From Limnobacter humi (lineage in GTDB: Bacteria > Pseudomonadota > Gammaproteobacteria > Burkholderiales > Burkholderiaceae_B): a stretch of 64,000 bases of DNA. Location of the stretch: positions 5,522-69,521 of the forward strand of contig NZ_JANIGO010000002.1 of the NCBI RefSeq assembly GCF_024518835.1, written 5' to 3'. Made by a program: the position numbers and the translations under genes. Positions 3,602-45,163 of the stretch are shown here, one piece after another. Below the pieces are notes generated by a model. It was not told the DNA's origin, did not search any database, and worked only from the letters and a program-made list of their open reading frames with translations. Numbering within the stretch: position 1 is the stretch's first letter; each line of letters opens with the position of its first letter.

Positions 3602-3608
3602 TATGGAC

Positions 3609-4016: not shown

Positions 4017-4474
4017 GCGGCTTCTCCTTTGGATGGGTGGCGTCGCATGAAGGTACCCACGCTGTAGGCCACAGGCTGCGGGTTGCCTTCCTGGTAAGCG
4101 GTGGCCCTGGTGAACGCTATATTGCGGGCCAGTCGATAGCATTCGGCCGTGCAGTAAACATCCAAACCCGGTGTGGCGGGCCGCAGGTAATCAATCCGCA
4201 AGTCCAACGTGGGCGTGGCTTCCGGGCTTTCCAGCAACGAGAAAATGGACAGTGCACTGGTGGTGTCGATGAGGGCTGTCATCACGCCGCCGTGCAACAC
4301 GCCGGTTTTGGAGTTGCCAACCAAGCGGTCCTGATAGGGCAGGCGCAGGGTGGCTTTGCCGCGCTCACCCTGCACAAATTCAAGTTTTAAAATAGTGCAG
4401 TGTGGAATGCGGCACAACCATTGGGCAACGCCATCAAACAGCGCCGGGTTATTCACGGGCAGGGGCAGGTTCAT
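4013..4474 (-). CDS. PaaI-like hotdog-fold thioesterase (first of a pair)
   Basis: A 153-residue hotdog thioesterase related to the downstream one: TGVLHGGVMTALIDTTSALS then LDLRIDYLRPA. The N-terminus NLPLPVNNPALFDG from ATG 4474 resembles the usual family start. A GTG at 4543 and an ATG at 4525 in the same frame would lengthen it by up to 23 residues; none of the starts has a strong ribosome-binding site, so the start is uncertain. It is divergent from the TonB-dependent receptor gene, and the 17-bp palindrome at 4552-4568 lies between them. Probable role: CoA-thioester hydrolysis. Confidence 0.8.
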   Translation of the reverse strand: MNLPLPVNNPALFDGVAQWLCRIPHCTILKLEFVQGERGKATLRLPYQDRLVGNSKTGVLHGGVMTALIDTTSALSIFSLLESPEATPTLDLRIDYLRPATPGLDVYCTAECYRLARNIAFTRATAYQEGNPQPVAYSVGTFMRRHPSKGEAA

Positions 4475-4551
4475 GCAGCACAGGGAAATATCGAAACGCC
4501 CGAAGTCTAACACCGGCCGCAACATGGCCCAAGGAGCACCCACTCTACTTG

Positions 4552-4568
4552 TGCGACATCATGTCGCA
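4552..4568. promoter_or_regulatory. 17-bp palindrome, probable operator between divergent genes
   Basis: TGCGACATCATGTCGCA has perfect 8-bp arms around a single C. It lies 64 bases before the receptor ATG and upstream of the thioesterase pair. It is not a Fur- or Zur-type box that I recognise. The regulator is not encoded nearby. Confidence 0.6.
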
Positions 4569-4632
4569 TGGCGTTAGCGGCCGCCAATCCTTAAGCTGTC
4601 GCCACGTTACACCCAACCCGTTTTTTTAAATC

Positions 4633-6717
4633 ATGCCGTTGTTACGCCCCTGGATTTTGGTTTTGTCATCAACCACGCTGTGTACAGTCCACGGCCATGC
4701 TTTGGCTGAGCATGAGCCCAGTCATCAAATGCCGGACGTGGTGGTCAGTGGGGCCAGCGAGCAACCGCTCCTGTCGACGCAGCCCAGCCGGGCGGAGTTT
4801 AAAGTGCGGATTGAGAACACCCCAGGCGGCATTGGCGCGGTGAATCGAGAAGAATTCGAGCAAGGCCGCGTATCCACTTTTGCAGACAGCCTGGGTTATG
4901 CCACCGGTGTGTTTATTCAACCACGATTTGGTGCAGACGAAGCCCGTTTGTCCATTCGGGGTTCGGGTGTTCAACGGACCTTCCATGGTCGGGGTGTTTG
5001 GCTTACCCAAGATGGCATTCCCGTTAATCTGGCGGACGGGTCGTTTGATTTTCAGGCGATTGAACCTTTGGCGGCTGACCACGTGGCGGTGTACCGCGGT
5101 GCCAACGCATTTGGCTTGGGTGTGGCTTCGCTGGGTGGTGCCATCGACTATGTGTCTCAAACAGGTTTGACCGCCCCCAGAGCCGCTGCTCGCATGGAAA
5201 CGGGTTCTTTCGGTTATTTGCGCTCGGCGGTGCAGGGCGCTTTCAAGGACGTTGCCAGCGACGGGTATTGGATGTTGTCCCAATCCCGTCAAGACGGGTT
5301 TCGGGATTTTTCCAAACAAGACAGCGTCAAGCTGGTGGGTAACCTCGGCCGGGTCATCAACCCCGATGTACAAACTCGGTTCTTCATGGCCAGCGCACGC
5401 AGCAATTCGCAACTGCCTGGCAATTTGACTTTGGACCAGATTCAACAAAACCCCCAGCAGGCCAATGCCACCAATGCGGCCCTGCGGCAGCGGCGTGATC
5501 TGAACCTCGACCGGTTTTCCAACCGCACGCGAATCCGCATCGGTGAAGGTGTGTTGGATGTGAATGGGTATGTCAGCAGCAAAGAGTTGTTTCACCCCAT
5601 TTTCCAAGTGATTGAACAGAACAACCTCGATTGGGGTGGGCAATTGAAATACGCTTTGCCGCACACCCTGTGGGGCATGCTGGCCGATACCGCCGTTGGC
5701 CTTGCCTATGGCCGTGGCGTGACGGACAACACCAACCGCGCCAACAATGGGGGTGTGCCGGCAGGGCCGTTGTTGGACCAAAGCCGCCAACGGGCTGAAA
5801 ACCAGTCCTTTTTCATTGAAAACCGCCTCGCGTTGCAATCGGACTTGTTGTGGATTACCGCGCTGCAATTTCAACAATCACAACGCCAGTACGACGGCTA
5901 CAACAGCACCGCCTTGGGCGGCACCGGGCAATTTCTCTCATTTGAGCGGCAATACGGCCAGATCAGCCCACGCGTGGGCATCATCAAAACGCTGGCTGAT
6001 CAGTCGCAGGTCTATGCCAACCTGTCTCGAAGCTTTGAACCCCCGTCGTTTGGTGAGTTGGGTGTCTCGGGCACCGCAGGTCAATTCACCATCAACAATG
6101 CAGCCCAGGACGGTGTTTCCGTGGAGGCGGGTTACCGTGGTGAACAATTGAATTGGGGGTGGGATGTATCGGCTTACTACGCTGAGGTGTACAACGAACT
6201 CATGGCCACTGTTATTCCCGGAACCACCATTTCCAGCACGTTCAATGCACCGGAAACCCATCGCCTCGGCCTTGAATTGGGGTTGCGCTACTCGGCTGGT
6301 GCTTGGACATTCCGAAACAGCACTCTGTTGAACCACTTCCGTTTTGCGTCGGACCCAGATTTTGGCGATGCACGAATTGCTGGCCTGCCAGCGGCAGCCA
6401 CGCGCCTGAGCGCCGAGCGGTTGTGGAACAGTGGTTGGCGAACCAGTCTGTCCATGGATGCAGCTGGCCCGACCTGGGTTGACCACAAAAATACGCTGCA
6501 GGCTCCTGGTTATGGTGTATTCAACGCACGTGTCAGTGTCCCCCTGGGCCTGGGTGCTCAGCCGTCTGCAGAATGGTTTGTGGATGCCCGCAACTTAGGC
6601 GACAAGCGCTATGTGGCCACCACCAGTGTTGTACGTCAATTCAACCCAGCACAGGCAGCCCAGTTTTTACCGGGGGACGGCCGCTCGCTGTACGCCGGGG
6701 TGCAGATTCGCTGGTGA
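4633..6717 (+). CDS. TonB-dependent outer-membrane receptor
   Basis: A 694-residue receptor with a signal peptide (about residues 1-25), an N-terminal plug (RLSIRGSGVQ, GIPVNLADGS, VAVYRGANAFGLG, SLGGAIDYVS) and a C-terminal 22-stranded barrel ending in the terminal aromatic residue (VQIRW) expected for BAM insertion. It belongs to the group annotated as siderophore or ferric-citrate-type receptors, which import iron chelates with energy from TonB. The PepSY membrane protein gene is convergent, 22 bases beyond its end; receptor-PepSY pairs are common in iron uptake. No N-terminal signalling domain is present, so FecIR-type control is not expected. The operator-like palindrome just upstream is the likely control point. 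Substrate not determined. Confidence 0.88.
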   Translation: MPLLRPWILVLSSTTLCTVHGHALAEHEPSHQMPDVVVSGASEQPLLSTQPSRAEFKVRIENTPGGIGAVNREEFEQGRVSTFADSLGYATGVFIQPRFGADEARLSIRGSGVQRTFHGRGVWLTQDGIPVNLADGSFDFQAIEPLAADHVAVYRGANAFGLGVASLGGAIDYVSQTGLTAPRAAARMETGSFGYLRSAVQGAFKDVASDGYWMLSQSRQDGFRDFSKQDSVKLVGNLGRVINPDVQTRFFMASARSNSQLPGNLTLDQIQQNPQQANATNAALRQRRDLNLDRFSNRTRIRIGEGVLDVNGYVSSKELFHPIFQVIEQNNLDWGGQLKYALPHTLWGMLADTAVGLAYGRGVTDNTNRANNGGVPAGPLLDQSRQRAENQSFFIENRLALQSDLLWITALQFQQSQRQYDGYNSTALGGTGQFLSFERQYGQISPRVGIIKTLADQSQVYANLSRSFEPPSFGELGVSGTAGQFTINNAAQDGVSVEAGYRGEQLNWGWDVSAYYAEVYNELMATVIPGTTISSTFNAPETHRLGLELGLRYSAGAWTFRNSTLLNHFRFASDPDFGDARIAGLPAAATRLSAERLWNSGWRTSLSMDAAGPTWVDHKNTLQAPGYGVFNARVSVPLGLGAQPSAEWFVDARNLGDKRYVATTSVVRQFNPAQAAQFLPGDGRSLYAGVQIRW

Positions 6718-6739
6718 TACAGGGTCCACCTGCAGCAGT

Positions 6740-8227
6740 TTAGCCGGGTCGATGCGAACGGCGCACCTTGATCACACCCAACACCGCCAGCAACAACACA
6801 CAGGCCAGTGCAACACTGCCAGTGGCCCAGTTCTGTAAGCCCCGGCCCAGTGGCTGAACAAAGGCCCATTTGTGTAGCCATGAGAAGCTCCAGCGTTCCG
6901 GCCTTTCAAACTGGTGAATCGAGTCGGCTAGCACACCACTTTGCGTGTCGATAAACACGGTGCTGCTCAATGGGGCTTCGAATTCGATTTGCCACACGGG
7001 CAGGCGTTTGTTTCTGAAATCATACTCGGGACCAAAACGGGTGATCAGCCGTGCAGAGCGGATGTTGGCCTCGCTTTGTCCCATGTATCGGGTGGCCAAT
7101 TGGATGGCCAATTGCCTGTCATCCCCGTTCCATGCCTGGCCTGTTTCAGCATTCACGTACAGCGCTGGGCCGGTCACCGGCGCACCATCAAACCGCGCAT
7201 TGCGAATGGCATCGGGCAGAATTGGAATACCGTCGGCTGTGCTCTCAGGTTTAAGGGCCAATCGATACAGCAGTTCGCCATGGGGTGACTCTACAATCGA
7301 AAAACCAGCCAGTTGGAGTCCCCGGGTGGTGTGCGCCCAATCGGCTTGAATATCAAATCGCAATCGGTGAGTCTCAATGGGTGGCGCAGCCACGGTGCGC
7401 ACTTCCACGTTGCTTGACGAATTCATCAGCAGGTGCAGCGCCCCGCTGAACGCCCAGGCGGCCAGTGGCACAGCCAACCCAAGGCCTACCCAGCGGTGAA
7501 GCGCTCGGGGCCAGCCTCGCGGTTTGCGCAGCCGAAGCGTTTTGAAAAAAACCGTCAGCCCGGTACCCGTCATCAGCAAGACAGTGCCCAGCAGCACCAC
7601 CATGGCCGGCCCTCGAACCCAGGCCAGGGGCTCTGGCATCCAGCTCCAAGTGTGCAGCCACTGAAATGCGGTTTGAAGGCGGCGCTTGGTTGGATCGGTG
7701 ACCGCAGCCAATGCGTTGGTTCCGGTGTGCACATAAGCCACCAGGCTATTCGCTTCCGGATACTCCAGTTTGTAAACCGGTAACAATCGGTTTACGGCCG
7801 GGTATTCGGTACTGAATTCGGTGATGAAGGTGGAGCGGGTCGCCATTCGATCGGCAGGCAGTTTCATGTAGTGCCGCACGATGAACGCAGCTTGCGCAAG
7901 GTCCTGTCCAGGAAGCTCTTGGCCCGTGGTCATGTCGAAATAACGCCGGGGTTCCTGGTTGGACTGGGTGACTTGAAGAAGCGGGCGTCCGTCATGGGGA
8001 AGCACCTGAATGAGTTGAGCCTGCTGGATGCCCGCTGTTTTCAGAATACCGGCAATCGACCGGGTGTGCTGCAGTTGCAGCGCCGGTGTGGGCGCGTTGA
8101 ACACCACTTGTTGAATGCCCAGCGCTGTCAGGATGGGATGCAACAAACCGGATAGCCCCCACAGCGTGACGGCGCTGGCAGCCAACCACATGAGGCGGCG
8201 GTGCAGGGCGTAAGCGCGGATTGTCAT
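6740..8227 (-). CDS. PepSY-associated transmembrane protein, possible ferric reductase
   Basis: A 495-residue inner-membrane protein with transmembrane helices near the N-terminus (RLMWLAASAVTLWGLSGLL), in the middle (AMVVLLGTVLLMTGTGLTVF and GLGLAVPLAAWAFSGALHLL) and at the C-terminus (GSVALACVLLLAVLGVI), and large periplasmic loops with PepSY-type segments. PepSY_TM proteins next to TonB receptors are thought to reduce ferric siderophores or handle the released iron, an inference from context here. It is convergent with the receptor gene and starts 125 bases downstream of the MFS gene on the same strand. It ends in a short basic tail (KVRRSHRPG). Confidence 0.8.
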   Translation of the reverse strand: MTIRAYALHRRLMWLAASAVTLWGLSGLLHPILTALGIQQVVFNAPTPALQLQHTRSIAGILKTAGIQQAQLIQVLPHDGRPLLQVTQSNQEPRRYFDMTTGQELPGQDLAQAAFIVRHYMKLPADRMATRSTFITEFSTEYPAVNRLLPVYKLEYPEANSLVAYVHTGTNALAAVTDPTKRRLQTAFQWLHTWSWMPEPLAWVRGPAMVVLLGTVLLMTGTGLTVFFKTLRLRKPRGWPRALHRWVGLGLAVPLAAWAFSGALHLLMNSSSNVEVRTVAAPPIETHRLRFDIQADWAHTTRGLQLAGFSIVESPHGELLYRLALKPESTADGIPILPDAIRNARFDGAPVTGPALYVNAETGQAWNGDDRQLAIQLATRYMGQSEANIRSARLITRFGPEYDFRNKRLPVWQIEFEAPLSSTVFIDTQSGVLADSIHQFERPERWSFSWLHKWAFVQPLGRGLQNWATGSVALACVLLLAVLGVIKVRRSHRPG

Positions 8228-33582: not shown

Positions 33583-33657
33583 TGGTGCCCCGGACAGGAA
33601 TCGAACCTGTATTTGACCCTTAGGAGGGGCCTGTATTATCCATTATACGACCGGGAC
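33583..33657 (-). tRNA. tRNA-Arg (anticodon CCT)
   Basis: A complete cloverleaf can be drawn on the minus strand: acceptor GTCCCGG/CCGGGGC with one G-U pair, D-stem GTAT/ATAC, anticodon stem GGCCC/GGGTC with loop CTCCTAA (anticodon CCT at 33624-33622), and T-stem ACAGG/CCTGT around TTCGATT. The 3' CCA is encoded. It reads AGG codons. A TAGAAT -10-like hexamer lies at 33680-33675 upstream on this strand. Confidence 0.97.
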
Positions 33658-33769: not shown

Positions 33770-33786
33770 TCAAACGCAGCGTTCGA
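33770..33786. promoter_or_regulatory. Imperfect palindrome, possible activator site for the sigma-54 promoter
   Basis: TCAAACGCAGCGTTCGA has 7-base arms with one mismatch and lies about 80-95 bases before the expected transcription start, a normal place for an enhancer-binding protein site. A shorter related string, TCGACGTTGA, is at 33737. Inference only. Confidence 0.35.
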
Positions 33787-33837
33787 GTTAACCCAATTAA
33801 ATATCAATATATCAATAGGTTGCATACATGGGGTTGT

Positions 33838-33853
33838 TGGCACAACACCTGCA
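33838..33853 (+). promoter_or_regulatory. Sigma-54 (-24/-12) promoter of the first ECF sigma gene
   Basis: TGGCACAACACCTGCA matches the consensus TGGCACG-N4-TTGCA at all but two positions, with the invariant GG and GC exactly 10 bases apart. The predicted start is near 33864 and the gene begins at 33890. The upstream region is AT-rich. Confidence 0.75.
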
Positions 33854-33889
33854 CCGTGAGAAGGAAATACATTCTCAAAAGGTCGGCCC

Positions 33890-34510
33890 ATGATGATGAA
33901 TACCCTGCAAGATGTTCACTGCCTTCAAGACAGCCTGTTGGCCCATGCGCTGGTTCAGGATGCACCACTGGCCCCGGAGCAGTTGCGCACCCTGGAAATA
34001 CTCCTGACCAGTCAGCGTAGCCGTTTGACCCATTTCATTCGAAAGCATTTGCGCAAAGACGACTGGGTGGATGATGTGTTGCAGCAAACACACTTGGCGG
34101 CATTCCGAAATTGGTCCCGCTTCCGTGGTGAGTCCAAACCGGAAACCTGGTTGTTCGGTATTGCATTGAACTTGGTCAAAAACTTCCGCTATCGCGACGA
34201 CAGCCATCGATTTTGTCAAGACGATTGTGAGGACGAAATCAACAATTTGCCCTGCAACAGCGAGCTGGAACCCGAGCAGGCTGCGCTGCAGCGCGAGCGC
34301 ATTGATTTGCTTCGAGGCGCCATCGAACACTTGCCTTTGAAAATGCAACGTGTGGTCCAACTGGTGTTGCTGGAGGGGCTGAGTTATCAGGATGCTGCGG
34401 TGGAATTGGATCTGCCAATTGGGACAGTCCGCTCCAGGCTGTCTCGCGCCAGGGATGCACTTCGAGAAGAGATGGAGCGCGCTGAATTGCCCCCTGAGAA
34501 AACCCACTGA
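33890..34510 (+). CDS. ECF sigma factor, HrpL-like (first copy)
   Basis: A 206-residue sigma-70-family factor with regions 2 and 4 only. Region 2 reads WVDDVLQQTHLAAFRNWSRF then ETWLFGIALNLVKNF; region 4 has YQDAAVELDLPIGTVRSRLS. It is closely related to the second ECF factor of this locus (FIxKHxR, VxDVxQQT, WLFGIALN, LPIGTVRSR). No anti-sigma factor with a membrane helix follows; instead a sigma-54 activator gene lies downstream. AAAAGG precedes the ATG at 33890, the first of three consecutive ATGs. Transcription is predicted from the sigma-54 promoter at 33838, as for hrpL in Pseudomonas. Confidence 0.88.
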   Translation: MMMNTLQDVHCLQDSLLAHALVQDAPLAPEQLRTLEILLTSQRSRLTHFIRKHLRKDDWVDDVLQQTHLAAFRNWSRFRGESKPETWLFGIALNLVKNFRYRDDSHRFCQDDCEDEINNLPCNSELEPEQAALQRERIDLLRGAIEHLPLKMQRVVQLVLLEGLSYQDAAVELDLPIGTVRSRLSRARDALREEMERAELPPEKTH

Positions 34511-34539
34511 ACCTATGCGGGTTACCCGCACCAGTGGGT
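34502..34539 (+). other. Composite hairpin between the ECF sigma gene and the activator gene
   Basis: Outer arms ACCCACTG/CAGTGGGT (34502-34509, 34532-34539) enclose inner arms TGCGGG/CCCGCA with a TTA loop. The outer left arm contains part of the ECF stop codon. No T-run, so translational insulation or mRNA processing is more likely than termination. Confidence 0.5.
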
Positions 34540-34573
34540 GAGGTGTCTGAAGACTGTTTTGAGGACAATTCAC

Positions 34574-35959
34574 GTGTTGCCGCTTTCAAAGCCCGTCATG
34601 AACCGACTGACTGTGTGTGTACGATCCCCAGACCTACGAAGCCGCTTGCGCGCAGCAGCCCTGTTGATGCAAACCGAGCTGAGGGAGATACAACTGGAAG
34701 ATTTGTTGAGCCGGCGGCCTTTGCCAGACCACTGGATTGCGGTGGATTCACCCGTGGATGAGCTGGTCAACCTCATCGATCGGCTGAAGGCAGAGGGCAG
34801 GGATCCCGCCACGCAGATCATCCGCTTCATCGATCAACCGTGGCAGACCTATGTGTATCACGATATACCCATTTTTGCGTCGATCGTCGTTCCAGCGGAT
34901 CCATTGTCAACTGTCCAGATTTTGGAAAAGCTGGCCAAGACACAGCCGTTTTCTCTTCAACTGGGTCAGTCAGGCTCATTCACTGAGCCTGATGCGGATA
35001 ACCCATTTCATGCTGATGTTGTCCGATCGCCAGGCATGAGACGGGCAGTGCAGCAACTGACTCGATTGAAAAACCTGACAGTCGACACCGTGTTGCTTGG
35101 ACCGACTGGCGCAGGCAAAGACACCGCCGCGCGTTGGTTGCATCAACAATCCCGCTGCACTGGTCAATTTGTCCACGTGAATTGTGCAGCCTTGCCGGAA
35201 AATTTGTTTGAGGCGGAGTTGTTCGGTGTGAGTGCAGGGGCCTACACAGGTGCCAGCAAAGACAGGCCCGGCAAACTGGAGCTCGCCCACCAAGGTACTT
35301 TGTACCTCGACGAAATCGACAGCCTGAGCTTACCTTGTCAGGCCAAATTGCTGACAGCCCTTCAGTACCGTGGAGCAACACGATTGGGTGGCAATCATTA
35401 TGTCGAGTCAGAGTGCCGGGTGATTGCATCCACGAAGGTGGACTTTCGGGCGTTGATTGATGCAGGGCGCTTTCGTGAAGACCTCTACTTTCGCTTGCAT
35501 GTGTCCCAGGTGCAATTGCCTGCCTTGCGGGACCGTTTGGAAGACATTGTTCCCCTGTATTCGAATTTCCTGAATTTATTTACCCAGCGTTACCAATGCT
35601 CAGCGCCAGTGTTGACGGCAGAGTTGGCCGATCAATTGTTGAGTCATGCCTGGCCAGGCAATGTGCGTGAGCTACAAGCGTGCGCACAGCGGCACGTGAT
35701 TGGATTGGATACCGGGCCGGACGGACTGCCGGCTGCGCATGAGCAGGCACCGCTCAGTTTCAAGGAGCGGGTATCTGCATTCGAACTGGCATTGATACAG
35801 CAAGCGTTGAAGCGACACCAGGGCTGTGCAAAATCAGCCAGTGCTGAACTGGGTTTACCGCTGCACGCCTTGTATTACCGTTTGCGCCGGTATGAACTGG
35901 AATTCAATCCCAGTGGTCGTTCCGATGGAACCAGTCCGTCAGAAATTGCACTCAAATAA
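34574..35959 (+). CDS. Sigma-54-dependent activator without canonical receiver (HrpS-like wiring)
   Basis: A 461-residue AAA+ enhancer-binding protein. From the GTG at 34574: an N-terminal region of about 150 residues with no recognisable receiver phospho-site, Walker A GPTGAGKD (176-183), the sigma-54 contact loop as GAYTGA (222-227, a variant of GAFTGA), Walker B LYLDEI (243-248), the arginine-finger stretch FREDLYFRLHV and a C-terminal Fis-type helix-turn-helix (GCAKSASAELGLPLHALYYR). It would open sigma-54 promoters such as the one before the upstream ECF gene. The GTG 34574 start has AGGA eight bases before it; ATG 34598 is the alternative. The last codons contain the ECF-type promoter of the next gene. 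Confidence 0.87.
   Translation: MLPLSKPVMNRLTVCVRSPDLRSRLRAAALLMQTELREIQLEDLLSRRPLPDHWIAVDSPVDELVNLIDRLKAEGRDPATQIIRFIDQPWQTYVYHDIPIFASIVVPADPLSTVQILEKLAKTQPFSLQLGQSGSFTEPDADNPFHADVVRSPGMRRAVQQLTRLKNLTVDTVLLGPTGAGKDTAARWLHQQSRCTGQFVHVNCAALPENLFEAELFGVSAGAYTGASKDRPGKLELAHQGTLYLDEIDSLSLPCQAKLLTALQYRGATRLGGNHYVESECRVIASTKVDFRALIDAGRFREDLYFRLHVSQVQLPALRDRLEDIVPLYSNFLNLFTQRYQCSAPVLTAELADQLLSHAWPGNVRELQACAQRHVIGLDTGPDGLPAAHEQAPLSFKERVSAFELALIQQALKRHQGCAKSASAELGLPLHALYYRLRRYELEFNPSGRSDGTSPSEIALK
35927..35954 (+). promoter_or_regulatory. HrpL-box-like ECF promoter upstream of the 74-residue gene
   Basis: GGAACC-N15-GCACTCA, preceded by T. The hrp box is GGAACC-N15/16-CCAC-N2-A, so there is one mismatch. 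It sits in the last codons of the activator gene, 25 bases before the small gene. The same string type occurs before the second ECF gene at 37887-37860. Confidence 0.6.
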
Positions 35960-35978
35960 AACCTTTGGAAAACATCTC

Positions 35979-36203
35979 ATGAGCAATTTGCCCAGCAACC
36001 TCATTTCACTCCGTTCCCAAGCCGCAAGCACTGGTGCTGTGGGTGGTGTTGGAGTTTCAGCGGTCAATGCGAGAGTCAACACCTTCGATTCGGTCATGAG
36101 TCGCTTGGCGTCCAAACCCTTGCAGCCTCTGTCAGTCAAGGTGATCAACAGCAATGATTCTTCAGAGGTGTACCTTCGGCAGGACAGTTGTTTGCAGTAT
36201 TGA
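35979..36203 (+). CDS. Small protein (74 residues) downstream of an ECF-type promoter
   Basis: Not recognised. It has no signal peptide or membrane helix. The N-terminal half is rich in Ser, Asn, Ala and Gly (SLRSQAASTGAVGGVGVSAV), followed by a predicted helix (NTFDSVMSRLAS) and a polar tail with one Cys. Composition and size recall type III-secreted small proteins or pilins, but there is no sequence match to support it. ATG 35979 lies about 20 bases after the predicted transcription start; the ribosome-binding site is weak. Probably cotranscribed with the next gene. Confidence 0.5.
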   Translation: MSNLPSNLISLRSQAASTGAVGGVGVSAVNARVNTFDSVMSRLASKPLQPLSVKVINSNDSSEVYLRQDSCLQY

Positions 36204-36220
36204 AGTGGAGTAATCAGCGC

Positions 36221-36565
36221 ATGGCTTCTAATCCCGATGTGATCGAACGTCATTTAACACTGCTTGAGCGTACTCAACCGGGTTTGGGTTGGTTCTCTCT
36301 TCTTCAGCATCAGTCGGCACCCCATGAATTCATCTGGGAACTCCGCTTGAATGAATACCACAGCCGTTGTCATCGAGAATGGCTCGATTATCGGTGGCGA
36401 TTCTTCAGCCTCGCAGGTTCTGCGCTACATTTGCGTAACGTTAATCAACTGGATATTTGTTTGATGCGTACCTTTGATTCGCCAGAGCAAGCTCAACTGG
36501 CGTTCGATCATTGGGTTGATACATTGCTGGGCGAATTGGAAGTGGCCAGCACTGAACGGGCTTGA
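36221..36565 (+). CDS. Small cytosolic protein of unknown function (114 residues)
   Basis: Not recognised. From ATG 36221 with GGAG ten bases upstream, it starts 17 bases after the 74-residue gene. Rich in Trp, Leu and His (LGWFSLLQHQ, HREWLDYRWRFFSL), predicted alpha/beta with a C-terminal amphipathic helix (QAQLAFDHWVDTLLGELE). No signal peptide or membrane helix. It could be an adaptor or chaperone for the preceding small protein, an inference from pairing. Confidence 0.55.
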   Translation: MASNPDVIERHLTLLERTQPGLGWFSLLQHQSAPHEFIWELRLNEYHSRCHREWLDYRWRFFSLAGSALHLRNVNQLDICLMRTFDSPEQAQLAFDHWVDTLLGELEVASTERA

Positions 36566-36605
36566 TCAATTCTGACCCGCTTCATCAACAGCCCCAACGC
36601 GGGCC

Positions 36606-37079
36606 TTAGCCTTCTGCCAAAAATGTCAGTTTGAATGCATATGCAAAATGAACAAATTCCTGAAAGCGTTGCATCAAGTCTTCAGACGAATCTTGAAAGT
36701 GCCCGATCATCTGCAGTCTTGCGGTGGTCGGCCACTGCAGGTCAAGCACGCTGCGCAGGCAATTGTCATGATTTGAAATCGCCAAGGCACTGGCATGTGG
36801 TGTTCGATGAATCAAATCTCTCTGTAGATCCAGCGCCTTTTCAATTTGCCGATTTTGGGTTTCAAGTGATTTCGCCAAACGGCTCAAACGCGCACTGATC
36901 CTGCAAATGTTGTTGGACAGTGGGTAAAGCTCCACACAAAACTGATTCTCAAATTCAATCCGAAAGCTCTGGTTTGTTTGAACGCCAACAAGTTCACCAC
37001 CGCCCATACCCAACTGTTCAAGAATCAAGGCGGTCGTATTCTGTGTTGGGTCTGGGATGCAAGCTTCAGGGGCGTTCAT
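36606..37079 (-). CDS. Small cytosolic protein coupled to the second ECF sigma, CesT-chaperone-like
   Basis: 157 residues, no signal or membrane helix. Its ATG shares one base with the ECF stop (TGATG), so both are translated together, the position normally held by an anti-sigma factor. The pattern (N-terminal helix ALILEQLGM, strands FRIEFENQFCVELYP and ICRISARLSRL, a middle helix, then ARLQMIGHFQDSSEDLMQRF and an aromatic C-terminal helix) resembles class I type III secretion chaperones of the CesT/Tir family. That match is by eye and tentative; a cytosolic anti-sigma or regulator role is equally open. Confidence 0.6.
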   Translation of the reverse strand: MNAPEACIPDPTQNTTALILEQLGMGGGELVGVQTNQSFRIEFENQFCVELYPLSNNICRISARLSRLAKSLETQNRQIEKALDLQRDLIHRTPHASALAISNHDNCLRSVLDLQWPTTARLQMIGHFQDSSEDLMQRFQEFVHFAYAFKLTFLAEG

Positions 37080-37690
37080 CAGTCCATGTATTGATCGTAA
37101 ATGTTTTTCAGCTGTGCTCTGGATCTCGAAATGCGAGATCGAACGGTACCAATCGGGATGCCCAGGATGTCGGCTGTTTCCTGATAGGAGTTTCCATTTT
37201 GAACGACGAGCACCAATGTTTCTCTCAAGTCGGTTGGCAATTTGTCGATCGCGCTTTGCAGCTTGATGCTGAATTCGTTTTTCATGCAATGCGACAGTGG
37301 GTCTGCATCCTCGGCCTGCTCGTTTTCCAGTTCGTCATCGGTGGTGAAATTGAATCGAAACTGTGGGGAGCGGCGTGACATGTTTCGAATGATGTTCAAG
37401 GCAATGCCAAACAGCCATGTTGCGCGCTTGGCGTCACCGCGGAAGCTGTCCCAGCAGCAGTACGCTTCGATCAATGTTTGTTGAAAAACATCCTCGACCG
37501 CATTTTCATCACGAAAGTGTTTGACGATAAAATTCCGCAGGCGTTTGTCCTGTTTGGCAATCAGGCTCTCAAACTCCGAGCGGGTGGTTGTTCCTCGGTC
37601 GGTGTCACACTGCTGGATGGCAGCAATTTTCAAGGGAGTCAGCTTGGGGGTCACGGCAAACCTCTCAACTTGAAATGGGATGGATTGCAT
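37079..37690 (-). CDS. ECF sigma factor, HrpL-like (second copy)
   Basis: A 203-residue ECF sigma factor, a close paralogue of the one at 33890: VEDVFQQTLIEAYCCWDSF, ATWLFGIALNIIRNM, then region 4 YQETADILGIPIGTVRSRIS. GAGG precedes ATG 37690; the in-frame ATG at 37753 is less likely. A HrpL-box-like promoter is 170 bases upstream, so this gene may be transcribed by the first ECF factor or by itself. It is coupled to the chaperone-like gene downstream. Confidence 0.87.
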   Translation of the reverse strand: MQSIPFQVERFAVTPKLTPLKIAAIQQCDTDRGTTTRSEFESLIAKQDKRLRNFIVKHFRDENAVEDVFQQTLIEAYCCWDSFRGDAKRATWLFGIALNIIRNMSRRSPQFRFNFTTDDELENEQAEDADPLSHCMKNEFSIKLQSAIDKLPTDLRETLVLVVQNGNSYQETADILGIPIGTVRSRISRSRAQLKNIYDQYMD

Positions 37691-37859
37691 TGATTCCTCG
37701 GCTTGTATGATTTGATTGAGCCACAAGGGTAGCAATCTCTCAAAAATCGACACCGGGAGTTAATCATTCGAAGCGAGTCACCGGGGTGCAAGTTCTCAAC
37801 GCCACTTAATTGTGTTAACCGCTCCAAGCTTTGGCGCTCCCGGGAATTCATTCATGTTC

Positions 37860-37887
37860 TAGGTGCTTCATCCCCGGAAATGGTTCC
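37860..37887 (-). promoter_or_regulatory. HrpL-box-like ECF promoter upstream of the second ECF sigma gene
   Basis: On the minus strand GGAACC-N15-GCACCTA, the same -35, spacing and -10 form as at 35927. It leaves a leader of about 160 bases before the ECF start, which contains a short open frame (37851 leftwards) of doubtful reality. Confidence 0.6.
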
Positions 37888-39919: not shown

Positions 39920-39941
39920 CCGGGACTAGCGAAAGTCCCGG
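39920..39941. terminator. Symmetric hairpin between parE and dnaE2
   Basis: CCGGGACT-AGCGAA-AGTCCCGG, 8-bp arms, covering the dnaE2 stop and starting 9 bases after the parE stop. It could serve both convergent transcripts; there is no T-run. Confidence 0.5.
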
Positions 39942-42900
39942 GAGTGAACGGTGAGTTCGGTCAGCAGTGGCGTGTAGTCCACCAGCTTTTTGGCCAGCAG
40001 GCTCACCACTTCCCCCTGCTGTTGCCAAACACCAAACACACCCATCACGGTGGCATTGCGCAATATGTGTCGCTGCTGTTCGGCCAGGTCATTCCAAACA
40101 ATCACATTCACATGTCCGGTTTCGTCTTCCAGATTTAGAAACACAGTGCCTTTGGCTGTGGCCGGGCGTTGACGGTGGGTGATCAGTCCACAGGCCCTGG
40201 CCAGTCGACCATCGGGATAGGTTTTCAAAGTGCTGATGGGCTGTATGCGGTGCTTGCTCAAATGCATCCTCAAGAATGCGATGGGGTGGTGCTCGAGGCT
40301 GGCACCCAGTGATCGATAATCCGCCAGCATGTCTTGCAAAGCCCCCGCCGGTGGCAAGGTCACGGTCGTCTCGGTTTGCCGTGTTTGTTGCAGCAAATCC
40401 CGGTGGTGGTCCAAGCCCGCGCTTTGCCAGACAGCCTGCCGTCGATGCCCGGCCAACACTTTCAGTGCATCGGCGTCTGCCAATGCTTGTAGGTCGCGGC
40501 GGTCCAATTGGGCGCGTTTGCTGAGGTCTTCAACACTGTGAAAGCGACCGGCTTGCCGGGCTTCCACAATGCGTTGTGCTGCTGCCTGTTTCAGGCCGTT
40601 GACACGGTTAAACCCCAGGCGTACCGGATACAAGCAATGGTTGTTGATCAGCCGTGAGCGGGCGTGGTCGTCACGGGTTATTGGGTGTTCCAGGTGACTG
40701 TCGACGCCACTGCATTGTACATCCACAGGCAGTACGTGCACGCCATGCCGTTGGGCATCTTGAATCAGTTGGGCGGGGGCATAAAAGCCCATGGGCTGCG
40801 CATTGAGCAGACCGCACAGAAAAGCATCCGGGTGGTTGCATTTGAGCCATGCAGAGATGTAAACCAGTTTGGCAAAACTGGCGGCATGGCTTTCCGGAAA
40901 ACCGTATTCACCAAAGCCTTCCATTTGCCGAAAAATGCTTTCGGCAAATTCGCGGGTGTATCCGCGTTCCAGCATCCCGCCCACCACGCGATCGTAAAAG
41001 TGGTGCAGGCCACCACGCCGTTTCCAGGCGGCCATGCCGCGGCGAAGCTGGTCGGCTTCACCCGGTGAAAACCCAGCCGCCAGAATGGCAATTTGCATGA
41101 CCTGTTCTTGAAAAATGGGTACACCCAAGGTGCGCTTCAACGCAGCTTTCAGGTCTTCTGACGGGTATTTCACGGCAGCCGGGTTTTGACGACGTTTCAG
41201 GTAGGGGTGCACCATGCCACCCTGAATAGGGCCTGGCCGCACAATGGCCACCTGGATCACCAGGTCGTAAAATTTCTCGGGCCGCAAACGCGGCAGCATC
41301 CCCATTTGGGCCCGGCTTTCCACCTGGAATACACCAATGGTGTCGGCCCGGCTCATCATGCGGTAGGTCTCGGGTTCCTCGGCAGGAATACCTTGCAACG
41401 TCTTGGGCGCCCCAGGCTTGTGCTGCAGCTCATCCAGTGTGAGCCGAATGGCGCTCAACATCCCCAAGGCCAACACATCCACTTTCATCAAGCCCATGGC
41501 ATCCAAGTCGTCCTTGTCCCATTGGATGACGGTGCGCTCCGCCATGGCTGCATTTTCAACCGGGACCAATTCATCCAGATTGTCCCGGGCTATGACAAAG
41601 CCACCCGTGTGTTGCGACAAATGCCTGGGAAAGCGCAGCAGCTCTTCTGCAAAAAACAGGCAGCGACGCACCACAGGGTCCTGTGTATCCAAACCAGCCT
41701 GTTGGGCATGCTCCAGGTTCATCACCCGGTTGTATCCGCCGTCTTGCGAGGTGGCAATCTGTTCAATCAGTTCAGGCGACAGGCCCAAGGCTTTGCCGGC
41801 ATCCCGAATGGCTGAACGCGGGCGGTACACCACCACACTGGCCGCCAGGGCTGCACGGTGCCTGCCATACTTGCGATAGATGTACTGGATCACTTCCTCT
41901 CGCCGACTGTGTTCAAAGTCCACATCAATATCGGGGGGCTCATTGCGCTCACGGCTGATGAAGCGTTCAAACAGCACTGCCATGTCGGCCGGGTTGACTT
42001 CGGTGATGTACAGGCAGTAACACACCACTGAATTGGCGGCGGATCCTCGCCCCTGGCACAGAATATTCTGGCTGCGAGCAAAACGAACAATGTCATGCAC
42101 CGTCAGAAAGTAAGCCTCGTATTGCAGCTCAGCGATCAAGCGCAGTTCGTGGTCCAGCTGTTCCTGAACAGAGGGGGGGATGCCGTTGGGGAAGCGTTGT
42201 CCAGCCCCTTGTTTGACCAGTGCCCGGAGGTACTCTGTTGGGCTCAGGCCTTCGGGGCAAACCTCCCGAGGGTACTGGTATTTGAGCTCGTCCATGGAAA
42301 AGCTGCATTGCGCTGCCCATTGCAGGGTGTTGTCTAGCCAGTCCGTCGGGTAAAGCTGCGCCAATTGGGTACGGGTGTGCAGGCTTCGGCTGCTGTTGGG
42401 CAGCAGTTTGCTGCGCACAGCCTGCAAGCTACCATTGCAGCGGATGGCTGTCAGCAGGTCGTGCAGGGGTTTTCGGTCGGGCGCATGCATCACGGCCCGA
42501 TTGCTGGCCAGCACCGGGCATTGGTATAGGCCAGCCAACGTTCGCAGTTGGGTGGTCCAGGCTGCATCAAAACCTTGCTGGGCCATGTGTGCTGCAATAC
42601 CGATTCTGCCGGTGTACCGGCTGCTGCACCACGCCAGAAAAACCGGGAAACCCGCCTTATTGTGCTCTCGCGGGATTAGTAACAGCAGCAGGCCGGGCAG
42701 GGGGGTGGCCAGGTCGCGGTGGGTGATGGTGTATTGACCTTTGTCTGCACGGGTTCGGGCTCGTGTAATGAGCCTGCACAACTGCGTGTAGCCTTCGCGA
42801 TTTTTGACGAGCAATGCAAAACGTTGACCGGCAAACTCGCCGCTGCTGGACAGTTCAAACTGAGCGCCCACAATCAGATGGATGTGATGCTCTCGGGCGG

Positions 42901-43078
42901 CTTCATGGGCACGCACAATGCCCGCCAGTGAGCATTCATCGGTCACTGCCAGGCTGCGGTAACCCAAGCGGCTGGCCTGCAGCACCAGTTCCTCTGGGTG
43001 GGATGCACCCTTCAAAAAACTGAAGTTGCTGGTGCACAGCAGCTCGGCAAACTCAGGGGGTGTTTGTTCGGTACTCAC
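39926..43078 (-). CDS. dnaE2: Error-prone DNA polymerase III alpha subunit DnaE2 (ImuC)
   Basis: A 1050-residue C-family polymerase for translesion synthesis. The N-terminal PHP domain (AELLCTSNFSFLKGASHPEE), the catalytic acidic motif PPDIDVDFEHSRREE and FGEYGFPESHAASFAKLVYI are visible, with a C-terminal OB-fold (GTVFLNLEDETGHVNVIVW). I choose the GTG at 43078, which overlaps the imuB stop (GTGA) and has GGAG upstream; the frame runs on to 43138 inside imuB. Last gene of lexA-imuA-imuB-dnaE2. Expected to be SOS-induced and to act with ImuB in damage mutagenesis. Confidence 0.94.
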   Translation of the reverse strand: MSTEQTPPEFAELLCTSNFSFLKGASHPEELVLQASRLGYRSLAVTDECSLAGIVRAHEAAREHHIHLIVGAQFELSSSGEFAGQRFALLVKNREGYTQLCRLITRARTRADKGQYTITHRDLATPLPGLLLLLIPREHNKAGFPVFLAWCSSRYTGRIGIAAHMAQQGFDAAWTTQLRTLAGLYQCPVLASNRAVMHAPDRKPLHDLLTAIRCNGSLQAVRSKLLPNSSRSLHTRTQLAQLYPTDWLDNTLQWAAQCSFSMDELKYQYPREVCPEGLSPTEYLRALVKQGAGQRFPNGIPPSVQEQLDHELRLIAELQYEAYFLTVHDIVRFARSQNILCQGRGSAANSVVCYCLYITEVNPADMAVLFERFISRERNEPPDIDVDFEHSRREEVIQYIYRKYGRHRAALAASVVVYRPRSAIRDAGKALGLSPELIEQIATSQDGGYNRVMNLEHAQQAGLDTQDPVVRRCLFFAEELLRFPRHLSQHTGGFVIARDNLDELVPVENAAMAERTVIQWDKDDLDAMGLMKVDVLALGMLSAIRLTLDELQHKPGAPKTLQGIPAEEPETYRMMSRADTIGVFQVESRAQMGMLPRLRPEKFYDLVIQVAIVRPGPIQGGMVHPYLKRRQNPAAVKYPSEDLKAALKRTLGVPIFQEQVMQIAILAAGFSPGEADQLRRGMAAWKRRGGLHHFYDRVVGGMLERGYTREFAESIFRQMEGFGEYGFPESHAASFAKLVYISAWLKCNHPDAFLCGLLNAQPMGFYAPAQLIQDAQRHGVHVLPVDVQCSGVDSHLEHPITRDDHARSRLINNHCLYPVRLGFNRVNGLKQAAAQRIVEARQAGRFHSVEDLSKRAQLDRRDLQALADADALKVLAGHRRQAVWQSAGLDHHRDLLQQTRQTETTVTLPPAGALQDMLADYRSLGASLEHHPIAFLRMHLSKHRIQPISTLKTYPDGRLARACGLITHRQRPATAKGTVFLNLEDETGHVNVIVWNDLAEQQRHILRNATVMGVFGVWQQQGEVVSLLAKKLVDYTPLLTELTVHSRDFR

Positions 43079-44412
43079 GCAAATACTCCATGCCAGTACC
43101 ACTGGGGAGGATCCATCTGCAAATCCCGATAAATCCACACCATGCTCCGTTGGGGATTCATTGCACAGTAATAGTCACGTTGGCATGGGGTGTTGTCCCA
43201 CCAGCCGTAATCCACCCGCTCAGGGCCCGACAGCAATTGCCAACGGCTGTTCAACGTCCAACTGGGGAGGGCGCCTTGCACGGCGCGTGCTTGTGGCAGC
43301 AACCACAGTGGGCGTGGTGTGCTGCCAGGCAATGCGGTGGGTACCTTGCGTTGGCTGGCCTGTGCGGGTGTGGGTTTGAATTGCAGACTGTGTTCGGGCC
43401 TTGGGTCTGGTGCGGTGTGTGCAAATAGCACCGCTTGCTCACCCAGGCGCGCGCGCAGCAGGTCGCAAGTGCTGTCCCAGTGGGTTTCGGTTTCCGTTGC
43501 ACTGGGAAACAGGCTCAAGCTGTGGGTTTGCCAGGGTTCGGTGTGTTCACAGCGCAGCAGGACATGGCGCACATCGTCGGTGAACGGCAAGCGCTGAAGA
43601 CGATGTTTCAACAGGTGCAACCAATCCTTGGCCTGGTGCATGGGGTTTGCACTGCGCAGGGGCAGTTCAATCTGCGCATGGGCTTCTTCGAAAGTCCAGT
43701 GCAGAGCCCGGGTGTGTTCTTGCCGGGCGTTCAACCAGTCTTCCAGTCGTTTGAGTAGCCGCTCTGCATGCCGAAGCAGGGCCTCGTGCTGCTGCGTGTG
43801 AAAAGGCAGTTCCTCCCGCTGTTCGAAAAACTCAGTGGGTGCATGAACCAGCAAGGCGGGCGCATCTCGGTGCTGCAAGCCAAAGCCGGAATCCAGTTCC
43901 CCTCGCAGGGTGTTGCCAAAGCGTTGGATGAAACCGTCGCGCGGCAGGTTCATCAACTGAGCCAAGGTGTGGAAGCCGCATTGTTCCCAGGTTTGCAAGG
44001 TGTGCAATGGGGCATCCAGTGCCTGGACTGGCAAGTCGTCCAGCGCGGGGCAGGTGTCCTGCTCTAGCCAATCTGCGTGCCGTTCAGCGGCTTTGTGCTT
44101 ACTGATCCACCAGGCGCCTGTGGCGGTGGCATGACGCCCCAGGTAGACCGGGTATTCCAAACCATCCAGGCTTTCCCACACTGTGTTCAGCAAGCCGTTC
44201 AGACCACCAAAGAGGCGCTCGCAACTGGCCACTTCCAGCAACCAACCCCGGTTGGCCTGGTGTTGATCCTGCCGCAGGCAAATGGTTGGGGTGAAACGCG
44301 CCATCCGTTCGTACACCTCGGCCTGGCGTTGCAGCACCCAGGGTTCAGAAGAGGGTTTGTTGCGGCTTGCCTGGGGTGTGGGTGTGAATCTCACGGCGAT
44401 CCAGCGCACCAT
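43075..44412 (-). CDS. imuB: Y-family polymerase-like protein ImuB
   Basis: 445 residues. ImuB is a catalytically inactive Y-family polymerase homologue that links DnaE2 to the beta clamp. Visible are YERMARFTPTICLR, the palm/fingers-like ASCERLFGGLNGLL, the thumb-like DLPVQALDAPLHTLQTWEQCG and the C-terminal Trp-rich region (VDYGWWDN, QWYWHG). The N-terminus is about 50-60 residues shorter than in typical ImuB: only some 25 residues precede the VLQRQAEVYERM stretch. ATG 44412 has AGGAGG upstream. It overlaps the end of imuA by 68 bases and dnaE2 by GTGA. Confidence 0.85.
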   Translation of the reverse strand: MVRWIAVRFTPTPQASRNKPSSEPWVLQRQAEVYERMARFTPTICLRQDQHQANRGWLLEVASCERLFGGLNGLLNTVWESLDGLEYPVYLGRHATATGAWWISKHKAAERHADWLEQDTCPALDDLPVQALDAPLHTLQTWEQCGFHTLAQLMNLPRDGFIQRFGNTLRGELDSGFGLQHRDAPALLVHAPTEFFEQREELPFHTQQHEALLRHAERLLKRLEDWLNARQEHTRALHWTFEEAHAQIELPLRSANPMHQAKDWLHLLKHRLQRLPFTDDVRHVLLRCEHTEPWQTHSLSLFPSATETETHWDSTCDLLRARLGEQAVLFAHTAPDPRPEHSLQFKPTPAQASQRKVPTALPGSTPRPLWLLPQARAVQGALPSWTLNSRWQLLSGPERVDYGWWDNTPCQRDYYCAMNPQRSMVWIYRDLQMDPPQWYWHGVFA

Positions 44413-45163
44413 AAACCTCCTGTGAGCGTGGGCCAATCGTGGCGTTTAGTTCATGTTCAAGCATCAGCCCGGGCAGGGCGCTGTGTGGTGTGGGCAGTGC
44501 AATACTCAAAGGGTGTTCCATGACTGGGCCACGCCGTTTAATGAGATGCACCCGCAGCCGGTGTGGGCTTTGTGCGGTCAGGCACAGGCGCAGTGAGGCC
44601 GGTGATGGCTGGTGTTGCGCATGTAGGGGGCGAAATACAAAACTGAGGCCTGCGCTTCGGCTGGACTGGTATTGCAAACGCCGCAACGTGGTTGGGCTGA
44701 CCAACTGCCGGTCCTCGGGCAACCACACCAGAAGCGCACCAAAGGCATCGCTGCGCAACAGTTGTTCCACGGCCCACAAGCGGTCTTGGGGCTTGCTGGT
44801 TTGTACCAGCGTGAGCTGTTTCAGGTTGACGCCATATTGCTCAAACACCGGGGTGAGGGGCAGGTGTGGGGGGGCCACCATCACCAGTTTGCGTTCTTCC
44901 AGCGATAGTCGCCTTAACACCGGCATGAGGAAACGCAGCTCGCCAATACCCTGGTGTTTCAGCAACAGTTCAATCAGGTTTCGGGTTGGCCAACCGCCAC
45001 CGGGCAGTTGCTGGTCGAGTTCGACAAAGCCACTGGGTATGCGGGCGGTGGTGTCGCTGCCCAGTTGGTGGGCGCGCCACAGGGCGGGGTGAATGTGTTC
45101 AGGCTGCAGGGGGGCGGCTGGCTGGCCGCCGTTTTCCAGAGGCAATTTGGGTGTGGATGACAT
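44345..45163 (-). CDS. imuA: ImuA, RecA/SulA-like partner of the mutagenesis cassette
   Basis: A 272-residue protein of the ImuA family, RecA-fold-like: the N-terminal helix (HPALWRAHQLG), PSGFVELDQQLPGGGWPTRN (the ImuA/RecA-like strand-loop), KLVMVAPPHLPLTP and a C-terminal region rich in basic residues. It works with ImuB and DnaE2 in SOS mutagenesis. It lies 26 bases downstream of lexA with no promoter of its own evident, so it is under the lexA SOS box. Confidence 0.9.
   Translation of the reverse strand: MSSTPKLPLENGGQPAAPLQPEHIHPALWRAHQLGSDTTARIPSGFVELDQQLPGGGWPTRNLIELLLKHQGIGELRFLMPVLRRLSLEERKLVMVAPPHLPLTPVFEQYGVNLKQLTLVQTSKPQDRLWAVEQLLRSDAFGALLVWLPEDRQLVSPTTLRRLQYQSSRSAGLSFVFRPLHAQHQPSPASLRLCLTAQSPHRLRVHLIKRRGPVMEHPLSIALPTPHSALPGLMLEHELNATIGPRSQEVYGALDRREIHTHTPGKPQQTLF

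What the first reader, a model, noticed from the sequence alone, without database searches (positions are those of the whole stretch)
33770..37887. Candidate HrpRS-HrpL-like regulatory cascade with two ECF sigma factors and orphan small genes
In order: a sigma-54 promoter, an ECF sigma gene, a sigma-54 activator lacking a receiver, two small unknown genes, and (convergent) a second ECF gene coupled to a chaperone-like gene. Both output units carry the same ECF-type promoter. This matches the Pseudomonas syringae logic HrpR/S to sigma-54 to HrpL to hrp box (established knowledge), but in a probable sulfur-oxidising environmental betaproteobacterium and without any secretion apparatus gene in view. 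It may control a distant type III system or an undescribed small secreted-protein system.
Basis: partly seen in the sequence, partly recalled or inferred. Interest (0 to 1): 0.82.

Follow-up and report, generated by a model that had tools for sequence, protein, structure and literature searches.

The report
Hrp-type switch for distant injection system
A water bacterium (genus Limnobacter) carries, far from its type III protein-injection machine, a small control cassette built like the switch that plant pathogens use for theirs, with matching promoter signatures at both places, so it very probably turns that machine and its cargo on.

Summary
This Limnobacter genome carries a sigma-54 promoter, ECF1, a receiver-less sigma-54 activator, two small genes behind an hrp-box-like promoter, and convergently ECF2 plus a chaperone-fold gene behind a second such box. 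The cassette is syntenic in all 13 long same-genus loci examined; the three promoters are conserved, box1 even across a reading-frame change. The guess of a distant type III system holds: another contig has a non-flagellar T3SS, and in 9 of 10 genus genomes a matching box lies 65-97 nt before sctV (0.9% of random windows). One box precedes an IpgD-family gene. The activator groups with HrpR/HrpS (100/100); the ECFs form their own lineages beside HrpL and BtrS. Best reading: a variant HrpRS-sigma54-HrpL-type cascade running a T3SS regulon, with an extra N-terminal domain on the activator, a second box-driven ECF and chaperone-like small proteins. Against it: no genome-wide box excess in most genomes, the cassette persists in three genomes without an intact sctV, and one genome has T3SS boxes without the cassette. 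Which ECF reads which box, and the signal, are unknown. Nothing has been tested experimentally.

The parts
33583..33657 (-). tRNA-Arg(CCT), left neighbour
   Evidence: the same tRNA lies at the same place in locus L105
33838..33853 (+). sigma-54 promoter TGGCACAACACCTGCA
   Evidence: conserved in 14 aligned loci (one with GCA for TGCA) and as TGGCACGTTTACTGCA in L105; rpoN is present in this genome
33890..34510 (+). ECF1 sigma factor (among mostly T3SS-linked ECFs)
34598..35959 (+). sigma-54 activator, sister group of HrpR/HrpS, with an extra ~140-aa N-terminal domain, no receiver
35927..35954 (+). box1, hrp-box-like promoter GGAACC-N15-GCACTCA for s74-s114
35979..36203 (+). s74, fast-evolving 74-aa protein, no known family
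36221..36565 (+). s114, 114-aa protein, model with beta-beta-beta-alpha-beta-beta-alpha order (pLDDT 85), possibly chaperone-like
   Evidence: fold match inconclusive
36606..37079 (-). [quoted passage not shown]
37079..37690 (-). ECF2 sigma factor
37860..37887 (-). box2, hrp-box-like promoter GGAACC-N15-GCACCTA for ECF2-chaperone

Best explanation
The cassette is the master switch of Limnobacter's chromosomal type III secretion system. An HrpS-type sigma-54 activator, tuned by an unknown signal through its extra N-terminal domain, fires the sigma-54 promoter in front of ECF1 and its own gene (positive feedback, inferred from gene order). ECF1, an HrpL-type sigma factor, then reads hrp-box-like promoters GGAACY-N15/16-nCAC in front of s74-s114, ECF2-chaperone, sct operons on another contig, and scattered effector- and chaperone-like genes. 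ECF2 is a second, box-driven sigma factor that probably amplifies or extends the regulon. The chaperone-fold protein, and perhaps s114 and s74, probably report secretion status back to the activator or the sigma factors, as HrpG/HrpV and Bordetella BP2265/BtrA do. Shown: genes, promoters and their conservation, the T3SS and its boxes, the regulator phylogeny, the chaperone fold (model). Inferred: direction of the cascade, which ECF reads which box, feedback, signal.
For: Synteny of ECF1, activator, s114, chaperone and ECF2 in 13 of 13 long loci (loci chosen by the chaperone gene); sigma-54 site, box1 and box2 footprinted in 14 loci, box1 across a reading-frame change. The genome has SctC, SctR and SctS above NCBIfam cut-offs; SctV, SctN, SctT, SctU are below theirs but score higher as T3SS than as flagellar; SctJ by tblastn. 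Exact box density in 10 T3SS intervals 10 vs 0.3 in 100 shuffles; four wrong-spacing controls 1, 1, 2, 4 vs 1.6-1.8. GAACY-N15/16-nCACNNA before sctV in 9 of 10 genomes vs 186 of 20000 control windows; a second one in this genome 32 nt before the sctI-like gene. Box-led IpgD-family gene in the same genome. Activator in one 100/100 clade with HrpR/HrpS against 9 other activators, one with an equal bit score. 60 of 75 ECF relatives fetched by sequence alone have an sct match nearby. The box (loose form) is enriched in 24 Pseudomonas HrpL-type loci (44 vs 2.9) and 8 Massilia/Herbaspirillum-type loci (22 vs 0.6), not in 16 BtrS-type loci (1 vs 1.1). Herbaspirillum HrpL promoters are published as GGAACC-N15-CCACTCAAT (PMC3487950, passages).
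Against: No expression or binding data. The box is below its reversed control in 13 of 16 genomes (above it in G002, G007, G011). Not every box in the T3SS intervals heads an operon: one in G006 lies inside sctC, one in G010 precedes a non-sct frame near metH. The cassette persists where SctV was not found (G005, G015) or is truncated (G004). G002, 85% complete, has a T3SS and boxes but only one ECF match, of ECF1 type, away from the cassette place, without a sigma-54 site, and no hit to the activator's N-domain. The ECFs are not inside the HrpL clade.
Confidence: 0.8

Rival explanations
1. The cassette mainly controls a T3SS-independent regulon (e.g. the ~410-420 aa box-led proteins) and the T3SS boxes are read by it only secondarily or by another sigma factor.
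For: G004 has only a truncated sctV (L270) but keeps the cassette, both cassette boxes and two box-led genes with relatives behind boxes in other species (L266, L268). G005 and G015 show no SctV, though G005 has a second SctN/FliI-like match.
Against: 60 of 75 fetched ECF relatives have sct matches nearby, the activator is HrpRS-type, and 9 of 10 sctV promoters carry the box. The box-led genes in G004 may be left-over secreted substrates. All three genomes are drafts (20-110 contigs).
Confidence: 0.12
2. Two separate circuits: sigma-54/activator/ECF1 drives something unrelated, while ECF2 alone, autoregulated from box2, drives the T3SS.
For: ECF2 is more conserved (72-79% vs 58-71% for ECF1) and has its own box.
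Against: In G002 (85% complete) only an ECF1-type factor was found and the T3SS still has boxes; locus L105 has the ECF1-type gene and activator but no ECF2 beside them. Sigma-54 control is the hallmark of HrpL (PMC8999054, passages).
Confidence: 0.1
3. The boxes are chance or generic ECF (RpoE-like GGAAC) promoters with no link between the two loci.
For: GGAAC -35 elements are common to many ECFs (recalled); no excess over the reversed pattern in 13 of 16 genomes.
Against: Spacing-specific, about 30-fold enrichment in T3SS intervals, 9 of 10 sctV promoters, conservation across a frame change.
Confidence: 0.03

Closest known systems
Pseudomonas syringae / Erwinia HrpR-HrpS - sigma-54 - HrpL - hrp box (ECF32)
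   Same: sigma-54 promoter before the ECF gene; receiver-less activator in one clade with HrpR/HrpS; GGAACY-N15/16-nCAC boxes at T3SS operons; order sctV-FHA protein-sctN-sctO-sctQ-R-S-T-U as in Pantoea Hrp clusters apart from HrpP
   Different: activator has an extra ~140-aa N-terminal domain and follows ECF1; two ECFs, the second behind a box; cassette not linked to the T3SS; ECFs outside the HrpL clade
Herbaspirillum HrpL (Betaproteobacteria)
   Same: HrpL-type ECF in a betaproteobacterium; published promoter consensus GGAACC-N15-CCACTCAAT (PMC3487950, passages) equals box1 of several species; a T3SS assigned to Limnobacter was reported as closest to that of H. seropedicae (PMC4224133, passages)
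   Different: its hrpL lies at the T3SS cluster and was reported to have no sigma-54 promoter (PMC3487950)
Bordetella BtrS / BtrA / BP2265
   Same: ECF sigma factor running a T3SS; a class I chaperone tied to the regulatory node (PMC10732220, PMC7498569, passages)
   Different: BvgA-controlled (PMC7498569); 16 BtrS-type loci show no box enrichment (1 vs 1.1); separate clade
HrpG/HrpV feedback pair
   Same: small proteins with predicted class I chaperone fold that control HrpS (PMC6069116, passages)
   Different: no direct comparison with HrpG or HrpV sequences was made; the role of s114 and the chaperone here is inferred

Membership tests
HrpR/HrpS activators | sigma-54 AAA+ domain with GAFTGA-type loop and Fis HTH | tested here: met
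   (domains); GAYTGA in the window and L031, GAFTGA in the other relatives whose sequence I saw
HrpR/HrpS activators | no receiver domain | tested here: met
HrpR/HrpS activators | same clade by phylogeny | tested here: met
   joint clade 100/99 and 100/100, as sister group, not nested inside
HrpR/HrpS activators | short protein (~310-350 aa) without N-terminal domain | tested here: not met
   453 aa with ~140-aa N-domain; HrpR/S rows 313-354 aa
HrpL (ECF32) | ECF sigma factor transcribed from a sigma-54 promoter | tested here: met
   sequence level only
HrpL (ECF32) | hrp-box promoters at T3SS operons | tested here: met
HrpL (ECF32) | falls inside the HrpL clade | tested here: not met
   ECF1 and ECF2 each 100/99 clades outside the 34-row HrpL clade (91/82); deep order unresolved
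HrpL (ECF32) | initiates transcription at hrp boxes | not testable with these tools
   needs in vitro transcription
Bordetella BtrS | same clade; same promoter type | tested here: not met
Class I T3S chaperones | alpha-beta-beta-beta-alpha-beta-beta-alpha fold | tested here: met
   36606-37079: (VecA 2.5e-5, ExsC, SicP, SigE); s114 inconclusive
Non-flagellar T3SS (G000:C1) | SctC plus export gate and ATPase distinct from flagellar ones | tested here: met

The most novel reading that the evidence does not exclude
A genus-wide Hrp-type switch with a two-tier ECF cascade (sigma-54 to ECF1 to ECF2), an activator that senses through a new N-terminal domain, and a secretion-coupled feedback by two chaperone-fold proteins; in species that lost the injectisome the switch lives on and drives another set of exported proteins.
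Probability: 0.3. Interest if true: 0.75.

Novelty: new variant of a known kind. Interest (0 to 1): 0.63.

Why it matters
HrpRS-HrpL control is known from plant pathogens. Here a homologous activator and an HrpL-type sigma factor with the same promoter code sit at a conserved place in the genomes of aquatic betaproteobacteria that are reported from algal cultures (PMC4224133, passages) and sea anemones (PMC4557100, passages). It offers a model for how such a cascade senses its surroundings, since here the HrpS-type activator has a domain that could receive the signal, and a promoter code with which to list the cargo of a T3SS of unknown purpose. In the library searched I found no description of regulation of the Limnobacter T3SS, nor of a sigma-54-driven HrpL in Betaproteobacteria; subscription journals are mostly not in it.

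Tried and rejected
Single-sequence scan with the activator found no relatives; replaced by the ECF alignment. Pattern searches for boxes in whole genomes gave no excess over the reversed pattern in 13 of 16 genomes, so genome-wide box lists are not a regulon; only boxes with conservation or position support are used. A matrix built from the 28 cassette boxes was strict around positions 7-9 and did not list the G000 sctV box at its threshold, so a pattern with spacing controls was used instead. The activator's N-domain looks by eye like a worn receiver, but no profile or PDB sequence supports this: rejected. With one query it was found in 2 of 399 genomes of the order, both of this genus, and in the MAG of L105. 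s114 as a class I chaperone: the order of elements fits, but no match reaches E 0.001 and the best are kinase N-lobes, with SpcU at ranks 5 and 36: left open. A T3SS in the MAG of L105: SctV-like in two frames and a SctN-like protein, no other sct match and no box on the 15.3 kb fetched: inconclusive. Phage records: nothing relevant. The first plasmid comparison with the whole activator ranked long proteins first; repeated with the AAA+-HTH part, where HrpS of Pantoea vagans (254 bits) and a Paraburkholderia activator (253 bits) tie, so the tree with the competitors decides, not the score.
Full report
What is there. The window lies in a 3.2-Mb genome (G000:C12:5522-69521) of the genus Limnobacter: contigs of same-genus genomes agree in length and place with named Limnobacter contigs (G007 = L. 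parvus, G013 = Limnobacter sp. 130, G005 = Limnobacter sp. CACIAM 66H1). Between a putative Na+/H+ antiporter gene with tRNA-Arg and a ParE/GyrB-type topoisomerase gene stand: a sigma-54 promoter (33838-33853), ECF1 (33890-34510), a sigma-54 activator (34598-35959), box1 (35927-35954), s74 and s114, then convergently the chaperone-like gene (36606-37079) coupled to ECF2 (37079-37690) behind box2 (37887-37860). The three small genes match no Pfam or NCBIfam family.

Is it more than chance. Two boxes in 64 kb are not improbable (10 of 100 shuffles have two or more), and in whole genomes the pattern falls below its reversed control in 13 of 16 (above it in G002, G007 and G011). But the cassette is conserved: the chaperone-like gene is found in 14 of 15 other genus genomes and in 0 of the 44 genomes of other genera searched. 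From those 14 I took 13 long loci (the 14th, G011, lies on a 3-kb contig); all 13 have ECF1, activator, s114, chaperone and ECF2 in the same order and place. s74 is found by tblastn in only 2 of the 13, but an s74-like frame is there in 4 of 4 loci whose frames I listed. Alignment of the upstream regions shows the sigma-54 site, box1 and box2 as islands in otherwise diverged sequence (counts). box1 lies over the last codons of the activator gene, in one reading frame in the window and another in the other 13, so the DNA is what is kept.

The distant target. The genome has a non-flagellar T3SS on contig C1 (761-783 kb, one strand): sctV, an FHA/sctD-like gene, sctN, sctO, sctQ, sctR, sctS, sctT, sctU, a small gene, sctJ, sctK-like, sctL-like, sctC, sctW-like, sctI-like, small needle-like genes, membrane proteins that may be translocators, and a DUF1521 protein. 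SctC, SctR and SctS pass NCBIfam cut-offs; SctV and SctU miss narrowly, SctN, SctT and SctD by more; V, N, R, S, T and U all score higher as T3SS than as flagellar. The SctL-like and SctW-like genes had no NCBIfam hit, SctI a Pfam hit below its cut-off, and the other unscanned labels rest on order and length. The cluster lies beside metH in the ten genomes fetched. SctV is intact in 12 of 16 genomes; G004 has a truncated copy, G011 a broken one in a poor assembly, and G005 and G015 show only FlhA. SctC passes its cut-off in 11 of 16. G005 has a second FliI/SctN-like match, so loss and assembly gap cannot be told apart there.

Same promoter at both places. In the ten T3SS intervals (247,578 bp) GGAACY-N15/16-nCACYYA occurs 10 times against 0.3 in 100 shuffles (max 2); the looser GAACY form occurs 14 times against 1.8, and with the spacing changed to N10/11, N12/13, N18/19 or N20/21 it occurs 1, 1, 2 and 4 times against 1.6-1.8. 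Not all head operons: one in G006 lies inside sctC and one in G010 before a non-sct frame near metH. In 9 of 10 genomes a GAACY-N15/16-nCACNNA box lies 65-97 nt before the aligned sctV start; of 20,000 random windows of the same regions 186 have one. In the tenth (G012) a box stands before a 438-aa frame upstream of sctV. In the window's genome another box stands 32 nt before the sctI-like gene. Outside the cluster, of the 15 further exact boxes in L. parvus, I count 7 with a start codon about 20-45 nt downstream (L238, L246, L251, L253, two in L254, L256; L238 and L253 by an internal ATG; L260 left out because it lies inside another frame). They include a second family that looks chaperone-like to me (L241, L242, L256; no Pfam hit for L241), proteins that look effector-like, and a radC-like gene. 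In the window's own genome one box (C12:495328) stands before an IpgD-family gene (PF05925, 5.6e-61; about 45 nt to the longest frame, about 95 nt to its ATG). The other 5 non-cassette boxes of that list are unconvincing or unclear.

What the regulators are. Of 75 loci fetched by ECF similarity alone (L105-L179; capped list, best 80), 60 have at least one sct match within the fetched stretch. In the tree (110 rows) ECF1 and ECF2 are separate 100/99 clades, neither inside the HrpL clade (Pseudomonas, Pantoea, Brenneria and others; 34 rows, 91/82) nor the BtrS-containing clade (Achromobacter, Bordetella and others; 22 rows, 96/90); the deep order is open. The box (GGAACY-N15/16-nCACNNA) is enriched in 24 Pseudomonas HrpL-type loci (44 vs 2.9 in 20 shuffles) and 8 Massilia/Herbaspirillum-type loci (22 vs 0.6) but not in 16 BtrS-type loci (1 vs 1.1), so by promoter code the Limnobacter system is of the HrpL type. 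The activator's AAA+-HTH part is 47-48% identical to HrpS of Pantoea, Lonsdalea and Brenneria and 43-45% to HrpR/S of a Pseudomonas. Bit scores do not single HrpS out, but a tree with close competitors puts Limnobacter, L105, an Eleftheria pair, a Vibrio regulator and HrpR/HrpS in one 100/100 clade against nine others. Its ~140-aa N-domain matches nothing known. A Burkholderiales MAG of unstated genus (L105) has the same neighbours with sigma-54 site, tRNA, ECF and activator only, so ECF1-activator looks like the older core and ECF2 with the small genes like an addition in Limnobacter.

The small proteins. The gene after ECF2 is predicted as a class I T3S chaperone (pLDDT 71; five matches at E 0.001 or better: VecA three times, ExsC, SicP; then SigE, SycH, CesT). 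s114 has a similar order of elements with pLDDT 85 but no match at E 0.001. [quoted passage not shown] in Bordetella a class I chaperone is needed to secrete the anti-sigma factor BtrA (PMC10732220, passages). A secretion-coupled feedback here is a reasonable guess, not shown.

Known and new. A T3SS in Limnobacter is in print: tabled for strain MED105 (PMC2702493, passages), doubted in PMC4557100 (passages), and placed as sister to the Hrp1 family, closest to Herbaspirillum, in cultures of the alga Ostreococcus (PMC4224133, passages). HrpL in a betaproteobacterium is in print for Herbaspirillum, with promoter consensus GGAACC-N15-CCACTCAAT and explicitly no sigma-54 promoter before hrpL (PMC3487950, passages). 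Not found in the searches named: the Limnobacter regulators, a sigma-54-HrpS-type control of an HrpL-type factor in Betaproteobacteria, a second box-driven ECF, or an HrpS with this N-domain (the last two were not searched for by name). I therefore call it a new variant of a known kind.

Against it. All evidence is sequence. The cassette is kept in G004, G005 and G015, where SctV is truncated or not found; G004 keeps two box-led genes with boxed relatives elsewhere (L266, L268). G002 (85% complete; the same contig as L117) has T3SS and boxes but a lone ECF1-type gene elsewhere without a recognisable sigma-54 site, no hit to the activator's N-domain and none to the sigma-54 factor itself. Which sigma factor reads which box cannot be told from sequence.

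Noticed in passing
L292 (Eleftheria terrae plasmid) 2863-6837; L096 (Azospirillum B510): Two HrpRS-clade activators beside an ECF sigma gene and tssA of a type VI system; the top-listed plasmid relative of ECF2 (45%) in Azospirillum also lies in a stretch with genes that look like type VI parts to me. The same activator-ECF logic may run type VI systems.
   Followed up: partly
L263 (G000:C12:300102) and L259 (G007:C7:662045): A box 99 and 119 nt before a response-regulator-like gene in two species; very similar box strings (ending ACAAGTCACCCA) recur in G003, G005, G006, G008, G012 and G014, where I did not look at the gene.
   Followed up: no
G000:C25:117270-121251: A further FliI-like/FlhA-like pair (494 bits to the T3SS ATPase model; 33% to SctV) besides those on C27 and C24: perhaps a second flagellar-type export set.
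   Followed up: no
L243, L244, L246: A box-like site 21-23 nt before the start of a radC-like gene in three Limnobacter species, with differing spacer sequence.
   Followed up: no
L236-L238, L266 (G004): A ~410-420 aa protein with Pro/Glu- or Pro/Thr-rich repeats behind a conserved box, in three T3SS-bearing species and in G004 with a truncated sctV.
   Followed up: partly
G000:C1:761269-762114: DUF1521 protein at the end of the T3SS cluster (1.9e-34); I recall this domain from rhizobial NopE.
   Followed up: no
window 39926-45163: DnaE2-like polymerase with an ImuB-like neighbour next to the ParE/GyrB-type gene (named from the translations): a probable mutasome cassette.
   Followed up: no
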